Positions 5,667-58,771 of a stretch of 64,000 bases of DNA are shown one piece after another. Each line of letters starts with the position of its first letter. Position 1 is the stretch's first letter. The DNA is taken from the NCBI RefSeq assembly GCF_900187605.1, contig NZ_FYEA01000005.1, positions 124,001-188,000 on the forward strand, given 5' to 3'. A program made the translations under genes and the position numbers. Source of the DNA: Pseudomonas sp. Irchel 3H7. GTDB lineage: Bacteria; Pseudomonadota; Gammaproteobacteria; Pseudomonadales; Pseudomonadaceae. The notes beneath the pieces are model-generated. The model did no database searches. It saw only the letters and a program-made list of their open reading frames with translations, and was not told where the DNA came from.

Positions 5667-6767
5667 TCAGAAATCGATACGCACATCCCCCTTCGGCACA
5701 CTGCAGCACGACAAGATAAACCCTTCGGCCTCGTCGTCCTCGGTAATCCCGCCGTTGTGCTCCATCTCCACCTCACCGCCCAGCTTCAGCACCTTGCACG
5801 TCCCGCAAATGCCCATACCGCACGCCTTCGGAATCATCAGCCCCAGCTTGGCGGCCGCCGCATGCACGGTCTCGCCCGGTGCCACACGAATGCTCTTGCC
5901 GGACGAAGTGAATTCGACCTGATGCAGATCCGCCGCATCGATTTCCGGTGCATCCGCAGCCTGCTCGGCCTGTTCGACCGCATCGGCACGGGCTTCCGGC
6001 GGCGTGGCGCCGAAGGATTCCTCGTGATAACGCGACATGTCGTAACCGGCCACTTCGAGCAGGCGCTTGACCGCGTTCATGTACGGCGTCGGGCCGCAGC
6101 AGAACACTTCGCGCTCGAGGAAGTCCGGCACCATCAATTCGAGCATCTTGTGGTTCAGGTAACCGCGATACCCGGCCCACGGCTCACCCAAGCCATGTTT
6201 CTCGCAAATCAGGTGCAGGCTGAAGTTGTCGATCCGCGACGCCATGTGCTCCAGCTCGCGGTGGTAAATGATGTCTTTCGGCGAGCGCGCGCTGTGGATA
6301 AAGGTCATGTCGACGTTAGCGTTGGTGTCGTAGAACCAGCGCGCCATCGACATGCACGGCGTGATGCCGACGCCGCCGCTCAGATACAGCACTTTCGGGC
6401 TCGGGAAGTCGATGGCATTGAACAACCCGACCGGCCCGTGCACCGCCAGTTCCTGGCCTTCATGCAGCGTATCGTGCAGCCAGTTGGAGACCTTGCCGCC
6501 CGGCACCCGTTTGATTGTCACCGAAAAGCTGTACGGCACCGACGGCGAACTGGAGATCGTGTACGAGCGCATGATCGGCTGGCCTTCGATTTCCAGCTCC
6601 AGTGTGACGAATTGCCCGGGCTTGAAGAAGAACAGGATCGGCTGATCAGCCATAAAGCAGAAGGTGCGCACGTCCCAGGTTTCCTGGATGACTTTGACGC
6701 AACGGACGATGTGTCGGCCATTGGCCCAGGTCTGGGTGGTGACCGGATTCAGGAAGCTGTTGGACAT
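5667..6767 (-). CDS. gbcB: Glycine betaine catabolism reductase component GbcB
   Basis: Electron-transfer partner of the Rieske oxygenase GbcA, which demethylates glycine betaine to dimethylglycine. It is 366 residues. An N-terminal FAD domain carries RSYTISSSPS, followed by an NAD(P) domain with YLSGGVGITPCMSMAR. A C-terminal plant-type 2Fe-2S ferredoxin domain contains ACGMGICGTCKVLKL and a last cysteine near LSCCS. The start at 6767 (MSNSFLNPV) has GGAG upstream; an ATG four codons earlier is less well placed. It is divergent from gbcA. Confidence 0.94.
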   Translation of the reverse strand: MSNSFLNPVTTQTWANGRHIVRCVKVIQETWDVRTFCFMADQPILFFFKPGQFVTLELEIEGQPIMRSYTISSSPSVPYSFSVTIKRVPGGKVSNWLHDTLHEGQELAVHGPVGLFNAIDFPSPKVLYLSGGVGITPCMSMARWFYDTNANVDMTFIHSARSPKDIIYHRELEHMASRIDNFSLHLICEKHGLGEPWAGYRGYLNHKMLELMVPDFLEREVFCCGPTPYMNAVKRLLEVAGYDMSRYHEESFGATPPEARADAVEQAEQAADAPEIDAADLHQVEFTSSGKSIRVAPGETVHAAAAKLGLMIPKACGMGICGTCKVLKLGGEVEMEHNGGITEDDEAEGFILSCCSVPKGDVRIDF

Positions 6768-7064
6768 GCTGTTCTCCACGGCCGACTGTCGGCCTCATGT
6801 CGGCGATTCTGCGTATAGCGCGAACCGCCCGTTTACCTATCCGCGACATCGGCATACTTATCGCGACCAGCCCCCAACCACCGGGGGTTGCGCGTCGGGA
6901 ACAGATTGCACCATGTCGCCCATGGATAAGGTTCGCGGCAGCGCCGGCCCCACACTCGCCCCAACACCAAGACAGATTCTTTACACCTTGCGTAGCAACC
7001 GTTAGCAGCACACCTGATCAGCCACTTTTCGCCGGCCACGCAGATGGCCATGAGGATCACATCG
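6768..7064. promoter_or_regulatory. Divergent gbcB/gbcA promoter region
   Basis: This 297-bp gap separates the divergent gbcB and gbcA genes and must hold both promoters. Established work in P. aeruginosa places GbdR binding sites in this interval. I did not identify the sites base by base. No coding sequence or repeat is apparent. Confidence 0.6.
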
Positions 7065-8360
7065 ATGGACGTCACCGCAAAAATCAGCCTGGGCGATCCG
7101 CTGGAACCCGCACGCAAGGCCACCGCACAAATGCTCCAGGAGCGCGAGCGCACGTTTTCGCTGCCGCAACCGTTCTACAGCGATGAGCGGCTGTTCGATA
7201 TCGACATGCAGGAGATCTTTCAGAAAGAGTGGTTGATCGCCGGCATGACCTGCGAAATCCCGGCCAAGGGCAACTACCTGACCCTGCAGGTCGGCAAAAA
7301 CCCGATCATCGTCATTCGTGGCGCCGAAGGCGTCGTGCACGCGTTCCACAACGTCTGCCGCCACCGTGGCTCGCGTCTGTGCACCAGCGAAAAAGGCAAA
7401 GTCGCCAAACTGGTCTGCCACTACCACCAGTGGACCTATGAGCTGGACGGGCGGCTGCTGTTCGCCGGCACCGAAATGGGCGCCGACTTTGACATGAAGC
7501 AGTACGGCCTGAAACCGGTGAACGTGAAGACTGCCGGCGGCTACATCTTCATCAGCCTGGCGGAGAATCCGCCGGCCATTGATGACTTCCTGTCGACGCT
7601 GAACCATTACATGGAACCGTACGACATGGAGAACACCAAGGTGGCGATCACCACCACCTTGATGGAAAAGGCCAACTGGAAACTGGTGCTGGAAAACAAC
7701 CGCGAGTGCTACCACTGCAACGCGTCGCACCCGGAACTGCTGAAAACCCTGCTGGAATGGGACGACGTCACCGACCCACGCGCCGATCAGGCGTTCAAGG
7801 ATCACGTCGCCGCCTCCGCCGCTGCCTGGGAAGCCGAAAAGATCCCCTACGCCCACGCCAGCTTCGGCCTGCGCAACCGCATCGTGCGCATGCCGCTGCT
7901 CAAGGGCACCGTGTCGATGACCCTCGACGGCAAACAGGGCTGCGCGAAACTGATGGGCCGCATCAAGAACCCGGACCTCGGCTCGATGCGCATCCTGCAC
8001 CTGCCGCACTCGTGGAACCACTGCATGGGCGACCACATCATCGTCTTCACCGTGTGGCCGATCAGCGCGCAAGAAACCATGGTCACCACCAAGTGGATCG
8101 TGCACAAGGATGCGGTTGAAGGCGTCGATTACGACGTGGAACGCATGCGTCAGGTATGGGACGCGACCAACGATCAGGATCGTCGACTGGCCGAAGAGAA
8201 CCAGCGCGGGATCAACTCCACGGCGTATCAGCCTGGGCCTTACTCGAAGACGTATGAGTTTGGTGTGGTCAACTTCGTTGATTGGTACAGCGAGCGCCTG
8301 TTGAGCAACCTCGGCGCCGAGCCTGCGCCGTACCTCAAAGGCGTGCCTGTGCAGGGCTGA
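7065..8360 (+). CDS. gbcA: Glycine betaine monooxygenase, Rieske subunit GbcA
   Basis: Catalytic Rieske non-heme iron oxygenase for the first demethylation of glycine betaine, releasing formaldehyde. It is 431 residues. The Rieske ligands are in NVCRHRGSRLC and VCHYHQW (about residues 99-129). The mononuclear iron site begins in NNRECYHCNASHPELL. The chosen ATG follows GAGGA; two in-frame ATGs at 7044 and 7050 are possible but poorly spaced. A family A/B repeat and the DnaA-box repeats lie downstream. Confidence 0.95.
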   Translation: MDVTAKISLGDPLEPARKATAQMLQERERTFSLPQPFYSDERLFDIDMQEIFQKEWLIAGMTCEIPAKGNYLTLQVGKNPIIVIRGAEGVVHAFHNVCRHRGSRLCTSEKGKVAKLVCHYHQWTYELDGRLLFAGTEMGADFDMKQYGLKPVNVKTAGGYIFISLAENPPAIDDFLSTLNHYMEPYDMENTKVAITTTLMEKANWKLVLENNRECYHCNASHPELLKTLLEWDDVTDPRADQAFKDHVAASAAAWEAEKIPYAHASFGLRNRIVRMPLLKGTVSMTLDGKQGCAKLMGRIKNPDLGSMRILHLPHSWNHCMGDHIIVFTVWPISAQETMVTTKWIVHKDAVEGVDYDVERMRQVWDATNDQDRRLAEENQRGINSTAYQPGPYSKTYEFGVVNFVDWYSERLLSNLGAEPAPYLKGVPVQG

Positions 8361-55060: not shown

Positions 55061-55423
55061 ATGACAAAATCAACGCCGCACCCGCCAGAAACAGATCCCG
55101 CATCCCCCTACGAATCCCTCGATTCCAAAAAACTCAACGACGCCGCCGAGCGCGCCCTCGACCATTACCTCAAACCGTCAGCCTTCATCATGGCCAGCAC
55201 GCATAAACCCGAACCCATGTACCTCGCCAACCCGAAGTACAACACCGAATCCCTGCTGGCCAACGCCAGCGAAACACTGGGTTCAGCCAGCGAAATGCTC
55301 AACAACTTCGCCGCCATGCTCGACACCTCACACCGCAAGACCGCGCTAGGCATTGCGCAAGTCGTCATGCTCGGTGAATTGGCGGTAAATCAGGCATTGG
55401 ATCACGTTGAACTGAAGGAGTAG
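55061..55423 (+). CDS. DUF6124 (DUF3077-type) protein
   Basis: Protein of 120 residues of the Pseudomonas-specific DUF6124 family. It has a polar N-terminus and a helical C-terminal half (SETLGSASEMLNNFAAMLD, then RKTALGIAQVVMLGELAVN). It has no signal peptide. The function is unknown. The start codon is preceded by AGG within a segment that can be sequestered by the leader. A terminator follows about 90 bp later. Confidence 0.85.
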   Translation: MTKSTPHPPETDPASPYESLDSKKLNDAAERALDHYLKPSAFIMASTHKPEPMYLANPKYNTESLLANASETLGSASEMLNNFAAMLDTSHRKTALGIAQVVMLGELAVNQALDHVELKE

Positions 55424-55513
55424 TCACTCATACCGAACTTTTCATTGAGGAATCCCTTGAATGTCCACTACAAGTGACAATCTTATCTTTTAAACGGTAA
55501 AACGCCCTCACAC

Positions 55514-55544
55514 AAGAAACCCACCTAACGGCGGGTTTCTTTTT
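55514..55544 (+). terminator. Intrinsic terminator after DUF6124 gene
   Basis: AAGAAACCC and GGGTTTCTT form a stem, with an inner CC/GG extension, followed by a uridine run. Confidence 0.85.
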
Positions 55545-55622: not shown

Positions 55623-55856
55623 TCACCCACTGCGCAAACGCAACCTCAAATCAAGTGTCGATTCTTTAACAATATTATAGTCTGCTAATGAGCGCCCCTC
55701 CTCGAGTTGCTTTCCATTAAAAATCAGCCACTGCTGATCAGGCGGAATGCCCTCCTTATCCTGTACTTTCTCCTTAACATTTAGGATACTGTCGCTTGAT
55801 TCGACCTCTAGAACGACAACCTTAGCATCAGACATTTTTTTTACATAAACCCGCAT
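55623..55856 (-). CDS. Ubiquitin-like protein, near-ubiquitin sequence
   Basis: Protein of 77 residues that aligns end to end with eukaryotic ubiquitin with a one-residue insertion near residue 10. By hand alignment against the remembered ubiquitin sequence, about 52 of 76 positions are identical. Invariant stretches include [20 protein letters not shown] and KESTL. Lysines equivalent to ubiquitin K6, K11, K27, K29, K33, K48 and K63 are all present. The tail is LRLRSG, with a single terminal glycine in place of Gly-Gly. AGGAG lies 7 bases before ATG 55856, which favours this start over 55871. Codon use is AT-rich, unlike the surrounding chromosome. No E1, E2 or deubiquitinase gene is recognisable in the window. 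Confidence 0.92.
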
Positions 55857-55871
55857 AGCTCCACTCCTCAT

Positions 55872-56012
55872 TTACAAACAACAAATAGAGAGCCAATCTC
55901 CAAACCCTATTCTCCTCACATTTAAGACTTCCACACCTGATAGAACTAACAGGTTTTCATAATAAATAGCGATAAACCCCATATCAAAAAATCGTAAAAA
56001 AGTGGACGAACA
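55872..56012. other. AT-rich gap upstream of the ubiquitin-like gene
   Basis: AT-rich sequence between the ubiquitin-like start and the left end of the transposon-like element. It should hold the promoter of the ubiquitin-like gene. I see no open frame. Confidence 0.5.
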
Positions 56013-56843
56013 AAAAAGGGAGCAGATTTATTTAGATCCTCCCATCCCTCACAGCTCCACTTACTTCGTTATAACAAGGACATAGTAGGTTATATGCCAA
56101 GAATGGCACGCATTGTATTACCCAATTATCCGCACCATATTGTGCAACGAGGCCACAACAAGCAGGTAGTATTCGCCACCCCAGAGGCTTCCGGCGATAT
56201 CTCAGCCATTTGAAAGAATTCAAGCATGTATTTGGCGTGAAGGTTTACGCCCTCTGTTTAATGACTAATCACGTCCACCTCCTCCTCGCCCCAGGAGATG
56301 ACGCATCTGGACTCGGGCAGTTGATGAAAGGTCTGGCTGGCCGTATGACGCGTTATCGCAATAGACTCGAAGGTCGTTCGGGCACCCTGTGGGAAAGTCG
56401 ATACAAATCTAGCGTCGTCGAAAGAGACACCTATTTGCTAGCCTGTAGCCGATACATCGAACTCAACCCGGTGCGAGCCCAAATGATTGGTCGGGCACAA
56501 GATTACCCGAGATCGAGCTATTCCTTGAGACTTAATGAAACTGCCGAGAGCATTTGGCTGGGTGAAAGCCCCGGTTTCAAAGGACTTGGATTAGACTATT
56601 CAGCCCGCTTGGCTCGTTACAGCGAATTGATAGATCAGGCCACACCCCCGTCAGAGTTGCAGTTGATAAGAGGGGCGCTTCAACGCGGGCAATTGACGGG
56701 CAGTCCGCGCTTCACAGAAGAAATTGAAAACATCACGGGAATGCGGGTTTCACAACGCTCTAGAGGGCGCCCCCCCCCGAAATAGTGTGGACGCTTACAA
56801 AAAAATCGAAAGGGATTGGATTTAATAAATCTGTCCCCTTTTT
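56013..56843 (+). mobile_element. RAYT-type element with terminal inverted repeats
   Basis: Left end AAAAAGGGAGCAGATTTATT (56013-56032) is inverted at the right end as AATAAATCTGTCCCCTTTTT (56824-56843), with two mismatches in 20. The pair brackets a single Y1 transposase gene. Such AAATCTGTCCCC ends are common around this transposase group. The encoded transposase is frameshifted, so the element is probably not autonomous. Confidence 0.8.
56094..56785 (+). pseudogene. Frameshifted REP-associated (Y1, HUH) transposase
   Basis: The N-terminal part MARIVLPNYPHHIVQRGHNK is read from 56094 but hits a stop at 56213. The rest (RRYLSHLKEFKHVFG onward) continues in another frame to 56785. One missing base between about 56172 and 56190 would restore a normal protein of about 230 residues. 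The HUH motif TNHVHLLLAP and the presumed catalytic Tyr in RYIELNPVRA are intact in the second part. Restarting at ATG 56210 would give 191 residues without the first strand. Confidence 0.85.
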
Positions 56844-57050: not shown

Positions 57051-57410
57051 ATGTCGCATCCGATAAATGGTGATTACAGCCACGTCTACTACGGCAAGGA
57101 AGAGACTATTCTTTTTCGCATTACTAGCCATGATGAAGCAAGTGGTAAATTCAGTGGGGAATTACTTGAGAACCAGTTCACCCCTTCTTCAACCAGCCAC
57201 AATATAAATGGATGGTTCAGTTTCAATAGAAGCACAAGTTCTACATCGTTTACCTTCGAGACGCCAACAGACAAGTGGGATTTGCAATCACCCTACTTGG
57301 AGAGTCCGAATCAATTCGGGATAATGAACGCAATCCGCACCCCAAAAGACAAATCGCAACCGCCTCAAAACTGGGTTTTATTGAAAACAAATTCACACAC
57401 AGGTACTTAG
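57051..57410 (+). CDS. Unknown small beta-rich protein in AT-rich island
   Basis: Protein of 119 residues with no signal peptide and a strong GAGGAG ribosome-binding site 7 bases before the ATG. It is rich in Ser, Thr, Asn and aromatic residues and alternates polar and hydrophobic residues (TSFTFETPTDKWDL, NWVLLKTNS), suggesting an all-beta barrel. I do not recognise the family. A loose resemblance to avidin-like barrels (IRT..NWVLL against streptavidin INTQWLL) is only a guess. Its AT-rich composition matches the ubiquitin-like gene. Confidence 0.7.
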   Translation: MSHPINGDYSHVYYGKEETILFRITSHDEASGKFSGELLENQFTPSSTSHNINGWFSFNRSTSSTSFTFETPTDKWDLQSPYLESPNQFGIMNAIRTPKDKSQPPQNWVLLKTNSHTGT

Positions 57411-57651: not shown

Positions 57652-57688
57652 GCATTAAAAAACCGCCTCACGGCGGTTTTTTTAATGC
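57652..57688. terminator. Bidirectional intrinsic terminator of fba
   Basis: GCATTAAAAAACCGCC and GGCGGTTTTTTTAATGC form a stem around TCAC, with A and U runs on both sides, so it can act on both strands. It lies just past the fba stop. Confidence 0.92.
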
Positions 57689-57706
57689 CGGCAAAACTCG
57701 AATAGC

Positions 57707-58771
57707 TTAGTTAACCTTGGCGTTCAACTCACCCTTCAGATAACGCTGGTACATCGCTTCCAGCGAGATCGGTTTGATCTTCGAAGCATTACCGGCAGTA
57801 CCAAACGCTTCATAACGAGCGATACACACGTCACGCATTGCAGTAACAGTCGCGCCGAAGAATTTACGTGGGTCGAATTCGCTCGGGTTGGTGGCCATCA
57901 GGCGACGCATCGCACCGGTGGATGCCAAGCGCAGGTCGGTGTCGATGTTGACCTTGCGCACGCCGTACTTGATGCCTTCGACGATTTCTTCAACCGGTAC
58001 GCCGTAGGTTTCTTTGATGTCGCCGCCGTACTGGTTGATGATCGCCAGCCACTCTTGTGGCACCGACGATGAACCGTGCATTACCAGGTGAGTGTTCGGG
58101 ATGCGCTTGTGGATTTCCTTGATGCGGTCGATCGCCAACACGTCACCGGTCGGTGGCTTGGTGAACTTGTAGGCGCCGTGGCTGGTGCCGATGGCGATGG
58201 CCAGGGCATCGACCTGGGTGCGTTTGACGAAGTCAGCGGCTTCTTCCGGGTCGGTCAGCATTTGGCTGTGATCCAGAACGCCTTCGGCGCCGATGCCGTC
58301 TTCTTCACCGGCCATGCCGGTTTCCAGCGAACCCAGGCAGCCCAGCTCGCCTTCTACCGAAACGCCGCAGGCGTGCGCCATGGCCACGGTTTGTTGGGTA
58401 ACGCGGACGTTGTAGTCGTAGTCGGTCGGGGTCTTGCCGTCTTCGCCCAGCGAGCCGTCCATCATCACCGAGCTGAAGCCCAGTTGGATCGAGCGCTGGC
58501 AGACGTCAGGGCTGGTGCCGTGGTCCTGGTGCATGCACACCGGGATGTGCGGGAATTCTTCGATCGCGGCCAGGATCAGGTGACGCAGGAAAGGCGCGCC
58601 GGCGTATTTACGGGCGCCGGCCGAAGCCTGAACGATCACCGGGGAGTCAGTCTTGTCAGCGGCTTCCATGATGGCGCGCATCTGCTCAAGGTTGTTGACG
58701 TTGAAGGCTGGAACGCCGTAGCCGAATTCGGCTGCGTGGTCCAACATCTGGCGCATGCTGATAAGTGCCAT
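57707..58771 (-). CDS. fba: Class II fructose-bisphosphate aldolase
   Basis: Zinc-dependent aldolase of 354 residues of glycolysis and gluconeogenesis. Zinc ligands and signatures are seen in [16 protein letters not shown] (about 74-90), [14 protein letters not shown] and [11 protein letters not shown]. The start [12 protein letters not shown] is normal for the family. It ends the tkt-epd-pgk-fba group, whose genes all point leftward. Confidence 0.96.

What the first reader, a model, noticed from the sequence alone, without database searches (positions are those of the whole stretch)
55623..55856. A bacterial protein about two thirds identical to eukaryotic ubiquitin
The 77-residue product covers all of ubiquitin, keeps counterparts of all seven conjugation lysines and most of the core, and ends LRLRSG. 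By hand alignment to the remembered ubiquitin sequence, about 52 of 76 positions match. Surface changes are telling: R42 to Trp, H68 to Asp and V70 to Arg alter the Ile44 patch, while R72 and R74 are kept. The single terminal Gly resembles a mature tail but with Ser for Gly75. Such closeness suggests relatively recent transfer from a eukaryote, and AT-rich codons support a foreign origin. Possible roles: a mimic that enters or blocks host ubiquitin machinery, a bacterial conjugation system whose enzymes lie elsewhere, or a defence component. None is shown.
Basis: partly seen in the sequence, partly recalled or inferred. Interest (0 to 1): 0.92.

Follow-up and report, generated by a model that had tools for sequence, protein, structure and literature searches.

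The report
Stray ubiquitin in a bacterial hotspot
This bacterium really carries a free-standing gene for a protein two thirds identical to ubiquitin; related genes are scattered through the same bacterial genus, some of them in the same gene-swapping hotspot, which in relatives holds toxin and defence genes, so it is probably a recycled ubiquitin used in microbial conflict rather than a fresh theft from a eukaryote or a working tagging system.

Summary
Confirmed: window 55623-55856 (minus strand) encodes a 77-residue ubiquitin, 52 of 76 positions identical to human, Pfam ubiquitin 2e-23, predicted structure pLDDT 93, TM 0.95 to 1UBQ. It is not a lone, recent eukaryotic import. 17 of 398 genomes of the genus, this one included, pass the ubiquitin cut-off. 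Three others carry a ubiquitin, or its remains, beside the same alginate lyase on the same strand. The interval to fba is a variable hotspot, 81 bp to over 5 kb, that in relatives holds HipBA, AbiL and xenorhabdolysin-like genes and duplicated fba 3' ends. The nearest relative by flanks lacks the gene. No conjugation pathway was seen: ThiF and JAB hits look housekeeping, biosynthetic or phage-derived; E2 searches were negative but lacked a working control. Only 3 of 8 bare copies keep a full-length tail. Best reading: a non-exported, probably non-conjugated relative of the Bacteroides fragilis ubiquitin, kept as conflict cargo. Function is inferred, not shown. Elsewhere in the genus ubiquitin is fused to an autotransporter barrel.

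The parts
55623..55856 (-). ubiquitin homologue gene, 77 aa (P0001), stop codon included
55864..55868 (-). ribosome-binding site AGGAG, 7 nt before the ATG
   Evidence: read from the sequence
55959..55987 (-). sigma-70-like promoter candidate TTGATA-17-TATTAT (10 of 12); 1 found, 1.2 expected in shuffles, so weak
55511..55543. copy of an fba-type terminator, 30 of 33 bases as at the fba end of the near relative L064; likely scar at the left edge of the inserted segment (the terminator scan does not list it)
57657..57690 (.). inverted repeat and T run downstream of the window's fba (terminator by eye); right edge of the segment
53920..54603 (+). alginate lyase (Alginate_lyase2), left border of the hotspot
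55061..55423 (+). DUF6124 gene, in 13 of 44 hotspot intervals by picked frames, 16 of 44 by tblastn
56097..56785 (+). Y1/RAYT-type transposase, broken by a frameshift near its start
57051..57410 (+). 119-aa orphan, hotspot cargo; no Pfam, NCBIfam or PADLOC match; structure prediction poor
57707..58771 (-). fba (class II fructose-bisphosphate aldolase, name recalled), right border; its 3' end is duplicated in several relatives

Best explanation
The gene encodes a true ubiquitin fold that belongs to a scattered set of bacterial ubiquitin homologues, of which the B. fragilis ubiquitin is the studied example. In this genus it travels as accessory cargo and sits here in a recombination hotspot at the 3' end of fba that in relatives also carries toxin-antitoxin, anti-phage and toxin-like genes. 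It most likely acts as a small stable protein that binds a partner non-covalently in microbial conflict, with antagonism of other bacteria as the single most likely use. Without a signal peptide it would leave the cell by lysis or by a delivery system such as a type VI system, of which this genome has two TssF loci. Shown: identity, predicted fold, family, same-locus copies, hotspot, no signal peptide, no conjugation operon next to it. Inferred: binding mode, conflict role, target and release.
For: Ubiquitin beside the same alginate lyase and on the same strand in W, L043 (G228), L046 (G033, truncated) and L047 (G105, fused and diverged; its stretch ends before fba). Patchy presence: of the 47 best-ranked alginate-lyase genomes, 43 were examined and 3 have it (W, G033, G105; the latter two were in hand because of their ubiquitin); the 40 fetched have none, including L064 (G097) with 99-100% identical flanking proteins. 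Other cargo in 44 intervals: HipA in 9, AbiLi plus AbiLii in 1, alpha-xenorhabdolysin-like subunits in 2 (best score just under the NCBIfam cut-off). Partial fba 3' copies in L064, L067, L072, L075, L084 and L046. Constraint on the protein: against five other copies pN is 0.25-0.33 while pS is 0.81-0.97 (0.39 and 0.74 against the G105 fusion); 14 of 14 core positions stay I, L, V, M or F. Conjugation features are not conserved: 5 of 8 bare copies end at residue 73, only one ends RGG. Eukaryotic contact patch lost here: 1 of 5 positions kept. Across 21 ubiquitin loci no enzyme of ubiquitin chemistry recurs next to the gene (by the first 50 residues of each shared protein). BfUbb is a secreted ubiquitin that inhibits strains of its own species (PMC5705921, passages read). 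Two TssF loci in the genome.
Against: No activity, expression or target is known. BfUbb is exported by a signal peptide; this protein has none and its first strand begins at residue 2. No immunity gene is recognised, though BfUbb producers did not seem to need one (passage). Decayed copies (L046/L013 truncated; L015 with an internal stop) show that the gene is often dispensable. Saturated pS shows past constraint, not present function in this strain. Toxin and defence genes were seen in relatives' intervals, not in this window's; here the neighbours are DUF6124, a broken transposase and an orphan without a PADLOC match, so guilt by association is weak.
Confidence: 0.4

Rival explanations
1. 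An intracellular anti-phage or regulatory protein: a ubiquitin fold that stays in the cytosol and binds a phage or host protein, without conjugation.
For: No export signal; AbiL and HipBA occupy the same hotspot in relatives.
Against: No PADLOC match for the protein; no match in 50,697 phage records at E 1e-3, no relative in the pattern scan of viral contigs; single-gene defence of this fold is not known to me.
Confidence: 0.2
2. A mimic or inhibitor that enters eukaryotic cells and interferes with the host ubiquitin system.
For: 68% identity to human ubiquitin, all seven lysines, R72 and R74 kept; [quoted passage not shown]
Against: The Ile44 patch is rebuilt (R42W, H68D, V70R, L8M), Gly75 is Ser, and there is no C-terminal Cys as in BfUbb; little room for an unstructured N-terminal secretion signal.
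Confidence: 0.15
3. A decaying remnant without function.
For: Truncated, stop-bearing or fused copies in relatives (L013/L046, L015, L014); broken transposase next door; in G016 the copy with the stop sits in the same DUF6124-ubiquitin-transposase block.
Against: Intact frame, good ribosome-binding site, core fully kept, high-confidence fold, pN well below pS against other copies.
Confidence: 0.15
4. A conjugated protein modifier working with E1-, E2- and JAB-like enzymes encoded elsewhere in the genome.
For: Ends in Gly and keeps the lysines; ThiF-family proteins exist in the genome.
Against: E2 families PF00179 and PF14461 gave nothing, though the controls were also silent. ThiF hits: one MoeB-like, one TcdA-like, one in a precursor-peptide/ABC-transporter cluster, one in a biosynthetic cluster, one AroE-like chance hit (MoeB, TcdA and AroE named by recall). 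JAB hits: a protein among prophage tail genes and RadC (named by recall). The tail is not conserved in sister genes.
Confidence: 0.05

Closest known systems
Bacteroides fragilis ubiquitin BfUbb (PMC3352274 abstract and passages; PMC5705921 abstract start and passages)
   Same: Bacterial free-standing ubiquitin of 76 residues when mature, 63% identical to human by the paper (window protein 68%); present in some strains only; its authors saw no activating and conjugating enzymes, and none dedicated was found here.
   Different: BfUbb has a signal peptide, is secreted and ends in Cys. The window protein has no signal peptide, ends RSG, has an altered Ile44 patch and lies in another phylum at a hotspot.
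Exported bacterial ubiquitins found here: Ub-autotransporter (G092, G166, G187, G325), Ub-IPTL-CTERM (Denitrificimonas), signal-Ub ending in Cys (Tenacibaculum)
   Same: Same PF00240 domain, 40-52 of 74-76 positions identical to the window protein over 13 exported or anchored copies.
   Different: They carry leaders that look like signal peptides (by eye) and, in many, C-terminal anchors; the window copy is a bare domain.
Eukaryotic ubiquitin
   Same: 52 of 76 identical, same predicted fold (TM 0.95 to 1UBQ), seven lysines.
   Different: G75S, R42W, H68D, V70R, a one-residue insertion; no E2 found in the genome, in searches without a working control.
Bil/BUB bacterial ubiquitination-like operons (BilABCD described in PMC11354881, passages)
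   Same: A ubiquitin fold in a bacterium, with defence genes at the same site in relatives.
   Different: No E1, E2 or JAB gene next to it; no PADLOC match.

Membership tests
Ubiquitin family PF00240 | score above the curated cut-off and ubiquitin beta-grasp fold | tested here: met
   82.4 bits against 25.4; AlphaFold pLDDT 93.1, Foldseek E 2.7e-12 and TM 0.95 to 1UBQ
Conjugatable eukaryotic-type ubiquitin | C-terminal Gly75-Gly76 | tested here: not met
   Tail is RLRSG; Gly76 alone is kept
Conjugatable eukaryotic-type ubiquitin | E1 and E2 enzymes in the genome | tested here: inconclusive
   No ubiquitin-type E1 recognised among 5 ThiF hits; E2 models PF00179 and PF14461 gave no hit but rang in no control
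BfUbb-type secreted antibacterial ubiquitin | N-terminal signal peptide | tested here: not met
   A stop codon precedes the 82-aa frame; no hydrophobic leader (by eye, no signal-peptide program was at hand)
BfUbb-type secreted antibacterial ubiquitin | C-terminal cysteine | tested here: not met
   Ends in Gly; no Cys in the protein. The feature is stated in PMC3352274
BfUbb-type secreted antibacterial ubiquitin | inhibits related strains | not testable with these tools
   needs a bench assay
Bil/BUB operons | Ubl, E1, E2 and JAB genes together | tested here: not met
   Neighbours are DUF6124, a transposase, an orphan, fba and alginate lyase

The most novel reading that the evidence does not exclude
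Ubiquitin has become a recurring, rapidly changing weapon or defence module in gammaproteobacteria: bare cytosolic copies are exchanged through the fba 3'-end hotspot, which also takes up toxin and anti-phage genes, while sister copies are displayed on the cell surface by autotransporter barrels or sorting signals, all working without conjugation.
Probability: 0.35. Interest if true: 0.82.

Novelty: new variant of a known kind. Interest (0 to 1): 0.62.

Why it matters
A secreted ubiquitin in B. fragilis has looked like a curiosity. The searches here find ubiquitin proper, not just beta-grasp relatives, in about 4% of sampled genomes of this genus (17 of 398, two of them marginal and two broken) in several formats: bare, surface-anchored, and fused or decayed. 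That makes the question of what bacteria do with ubiquitin directly testable in easily handled laboratory strains.

Tried and rejected
Recent single transfer from a eukaryote: rejected on same-locus copies and saturated synonymous sites. Contamination: rejected, 413,865-base contig and shared gene order. Plasmid or phage carriage: 3 plasmid records match the protein (Ruminococcus albus, two Pseudoalteromonas); the only plasmid match to the 2.2-kb segment is a transposase in one Pseudomonas aeruginosa record; none in phages; in viral contigs 18 pattern hits but no relative. One clade of all eight bare copies: neither shown nor rejected (AU p 0.22). A second draw of the genus around G228 (348 genomes) gave no new positives. 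The 119-aa neighbour was folded alone and came out at pLDDT 39, unusable. An LSm-like relation of the N-terminal half of the G105 fusion was suspected by eye, but blastp among the hotspot proteins found no relative. An attempt to name the genus by plasmid similarity of the flank did not name it. Matches L018-L020 lie below the cut-off; L020 is GGDEF-like by eye, the other two were not read on the right strand; all three were dropped.

In print: searches listed BfUbb papers but, in what they listed, none on ubiquitin in this genus or on a ubiquitin-autotransporter fusion; the library lacks most subscription papers. The 2024 Nature Microbiology paper on BfUbb and a prolyl isomerase is not held; I know it only as cited in PMC12396204 (passages).

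Full report
What is there. The minus-strand frame at 55623-55856 gives 77 residues ending LRLRSG. AGGAG stands 7 nt before the ATG (read), and a weak sigma-70-like site lies about 100 nt further up (1 found, 1.2 expected). Pfam gives ubiquitin at 2e-23. The phmmer search of the PDB matches 375 distinct sequences at E 0.001, of which 60 were shown, nearly all named as ubiquitin, polyubiquitin or a ubiquitin fusion. Against human ubiquitin 52 of 76 positions agree. AlphaFold, with seven sequences, gives pLDDT 93.1 and pTM 0.81; Foldseek lists solved ubiquitins first, 1UBQ at rank 14 with TM 0.95.

What changed on the surface. All seven lysines stand, and all 14 core positions (list recalled) stay I, L, V, M or F, but only 1 of 5 positions of the Ile44 contact patch (list recalled) is kept, and Gly75 is Ser. 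Over eight bare copies in the genus, the core keeps such residues in 106 of 112 cells and the patch is kept in 25 of 40; the lysines are kept in 2 to 7 of 7. Five of eight copies end at residue 73; the others end RGG, KGGL and RSG. A conjugation tail is thus not what selection preserves.

Distribution. The genome has one copy. In 398 genomes of the genus, this one included, 20 match at E <= 0.001 and 17 pass the cut-off. By reading the frames these 17 are: 8 bare copies (G000, G245, G018, G370, G228, G384, G126, G339), 4 leader-ubiquitin-barrel fusions (G187, G166, G325, G092; the barrel was tested by Pfam in G092 only), 1 N-terminal fusion (G105), 1 truncated (G033), 1 with an internal stop (G016), and 2 marginal (G085, G029; the G029 protein falls under the cut-off as a protein). 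In the order, 6 of 390 match, this genome included. A protein search of 293 relatives found 11, this genome included. In the GTDB contigs, by a pattern scan that finds close relatives only, six came back: an Actinomycetota MAG, Denitrificimonas, Lysobacter, an Opitutia MAG and two Tenacibaculum. The closest of these is as similar to the window protein as human ubiquitin is (52 of 76 for both).

Locus. A comparison of neighbours (output partly cut; repeated within 6 kb of each gene for 21 loci and 293 frames) showed that the window, L043 (G228), L046 (G033) and L047 (G105) carry the ubiquitin beside the same alginate lyase, on the same strand; fba is on the other side in the first three and beyond the fetched stretch's end in L047. 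Another set (L040, L041, L042) has it, on a constant strand, between an oxidoreductase-like gene and a NUDIX-like gene, with other genes in between in two of them (names by eye). The window also shares with L048 (G016), at another chromosomal place, the order DUF6124, ubiquitin (there with a stop), transposase. So the block may move together. Otherwise the gene families shared across unlike positions near the gene are few and look incidental, such as GGDEF-like and LysR-like paralogues (by eye).

Hotspot. I searched 199 genomes with the alginate lyase (165 matched). Of the 47 best-ranked genomes, three were in hand (the window, G033, G105), 40 were fetched, and four were left out (G167, G002, G114, G178). 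The interval to fba runs from 81 bp to more than 5 kb; in several stretches fba is cut by, or lies beyond, the fetched end (L072, L076, L079, L085, L089, L098). Of the 40, none matches a panel of 13 ubiquitin sequences, so 3 of 43 have it here. Over 44 intervals (these 43 and G228), 10 hold no picked frame of 70 aa or more, 9 hold HipA, 13 DUF6124 (16 by tblastn), 5 the transposase, 6 a small orphan family, 2 xenorhabdolysin-like genes, 1 an AbiLi/AbiLii pair. Partial copies of the fba 3' end lie inside the interval in L064, L067, L072 (two), L075, L084 and L046. The window itself keeps a 33-base terminator-like copy at 55511-55543 that matches the fba end of L064 at 30 of 33, so the 2.1-kb segment with the ubiquitin, the broken transposase and the 119-aa orphan lies between two fba-type terminators. 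L064, with flanking proteins 99-100% identical, has no ubiquitin there. I read this as exchange by recombination at fba; the reading is inference.

History. Pairwise comparisons give pN 0.25-0.39 and pS 0.74-0.97 between the window copy and six others: mostly saturated synonymous sites with the protein held back. The one close pair of bare copies (G018, G370) has omega 0.40, a looser constraint. The tree (22 rows, 76 columns, one eukaryotic row; the G105 fusion left out) is star-like: 2 of 19 inner branches are strong, the window pairs with G228 at 90/70, and the human row has a branch of length zero. By path the human row is also the window's nearest neighbour (0.43), ahead of the Actinomycetota row (0.47). 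A eukaryotic source is plausible, its date is not recent, and the number of transfers is open.

Conjugation. PF00179 and PF14461 gave no hit, but also no control hit. Of five ThiF hits one is MoeB-like, one TcdA-like, one sits beside a small precursor-like peptide and an ABC transporter, one sits in a biosynthetic cluster, one is AroE-like (names partly recalled). Prok-JAB hits are a protein among prophage tail genes and RadC (by recall). Nothing next to the ubiquitin gene is an enzyme of this kind.

Judgement. The setting speaks for an accessory conflict protein. What the protein binds, and whether it acts inside the cell or on neighbours, no call shows. I put antagonism first because the bacterial ubiquitin whose function has been tested in the papers I saw is an antibacterial protein (PMC5705921, abstract start and passages) and because toxin-like and defence cargo shares the hotspot in relatives; the lack of a signal peptide is the main argument against.

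Noticed in passing
L006, L002, L004, L005 (genomes G092, G187, G166, G325): Leader like a signal peptide (by eye) + ubiquitin + about 300-residue C-terminus; the G092 protein hits Autotransporter beta-domain at 1.5e-16: a ubiquitin probably displayed on the bacterial surface. The other three were judged by the likeness of their frames only.
   Followed up: partly
L022 6001-6336, L054 and L055: Exported ubiquitins with C-terminal sorting signals: L022 has IPTL-CTERM (4.9e-10); L054 and L055 look alike by eye.
   Followed up: partly
L021 6001-7387 (Actinomycetota MAG): Two ubiquitin-bearing frames in a row: the one that brought the locus in and a second at 6707-7387.
   Followed up: no
L048 9433-11503 (genome G016): Same order as the window (DUF6124, ubiquitin with an internal stop, transposase) at another chromosomal place: the block may move as a unit.
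   Followed up: partly
L072, L075, L084, L064, L067, L046, between alginate lyase and fba: Partial copies of the fba 3' end beside cargo genes, two in L072: a recombination-driven cargo hotspot.
   Followed up: partly
L050 9880-10710 (genome G029): A 276-aa protein with a weak N-terminal ubiquitin-like match (22.8 bits, below cut-off) next to TssF/TssG/ClpV-like frames (names by eye).
   Followed up: partly
L047 9909-10373 (genome G105): At the same locus the ubiquitin is fused to an N-terminal part of about 76 residues with no Pfam match.
   Followed up: partly
L085 and L089: Hotspot operon in two relatives; in L085 two proteins resemble alpha-xenorhabdolysin subunit A (117.3 and 36.6 bits, cut-off 125); L089 shares the first of these by blastp.
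   Followed up: partly
L104 5988-9652 (window genome, contig C19): ThiF-family protein beside a 99-aa peptide ending EEVSGGACTARSFRACDG and a peptidase-ABC transporter: looks like a peptide natural-product cluster.
   Followed up: no
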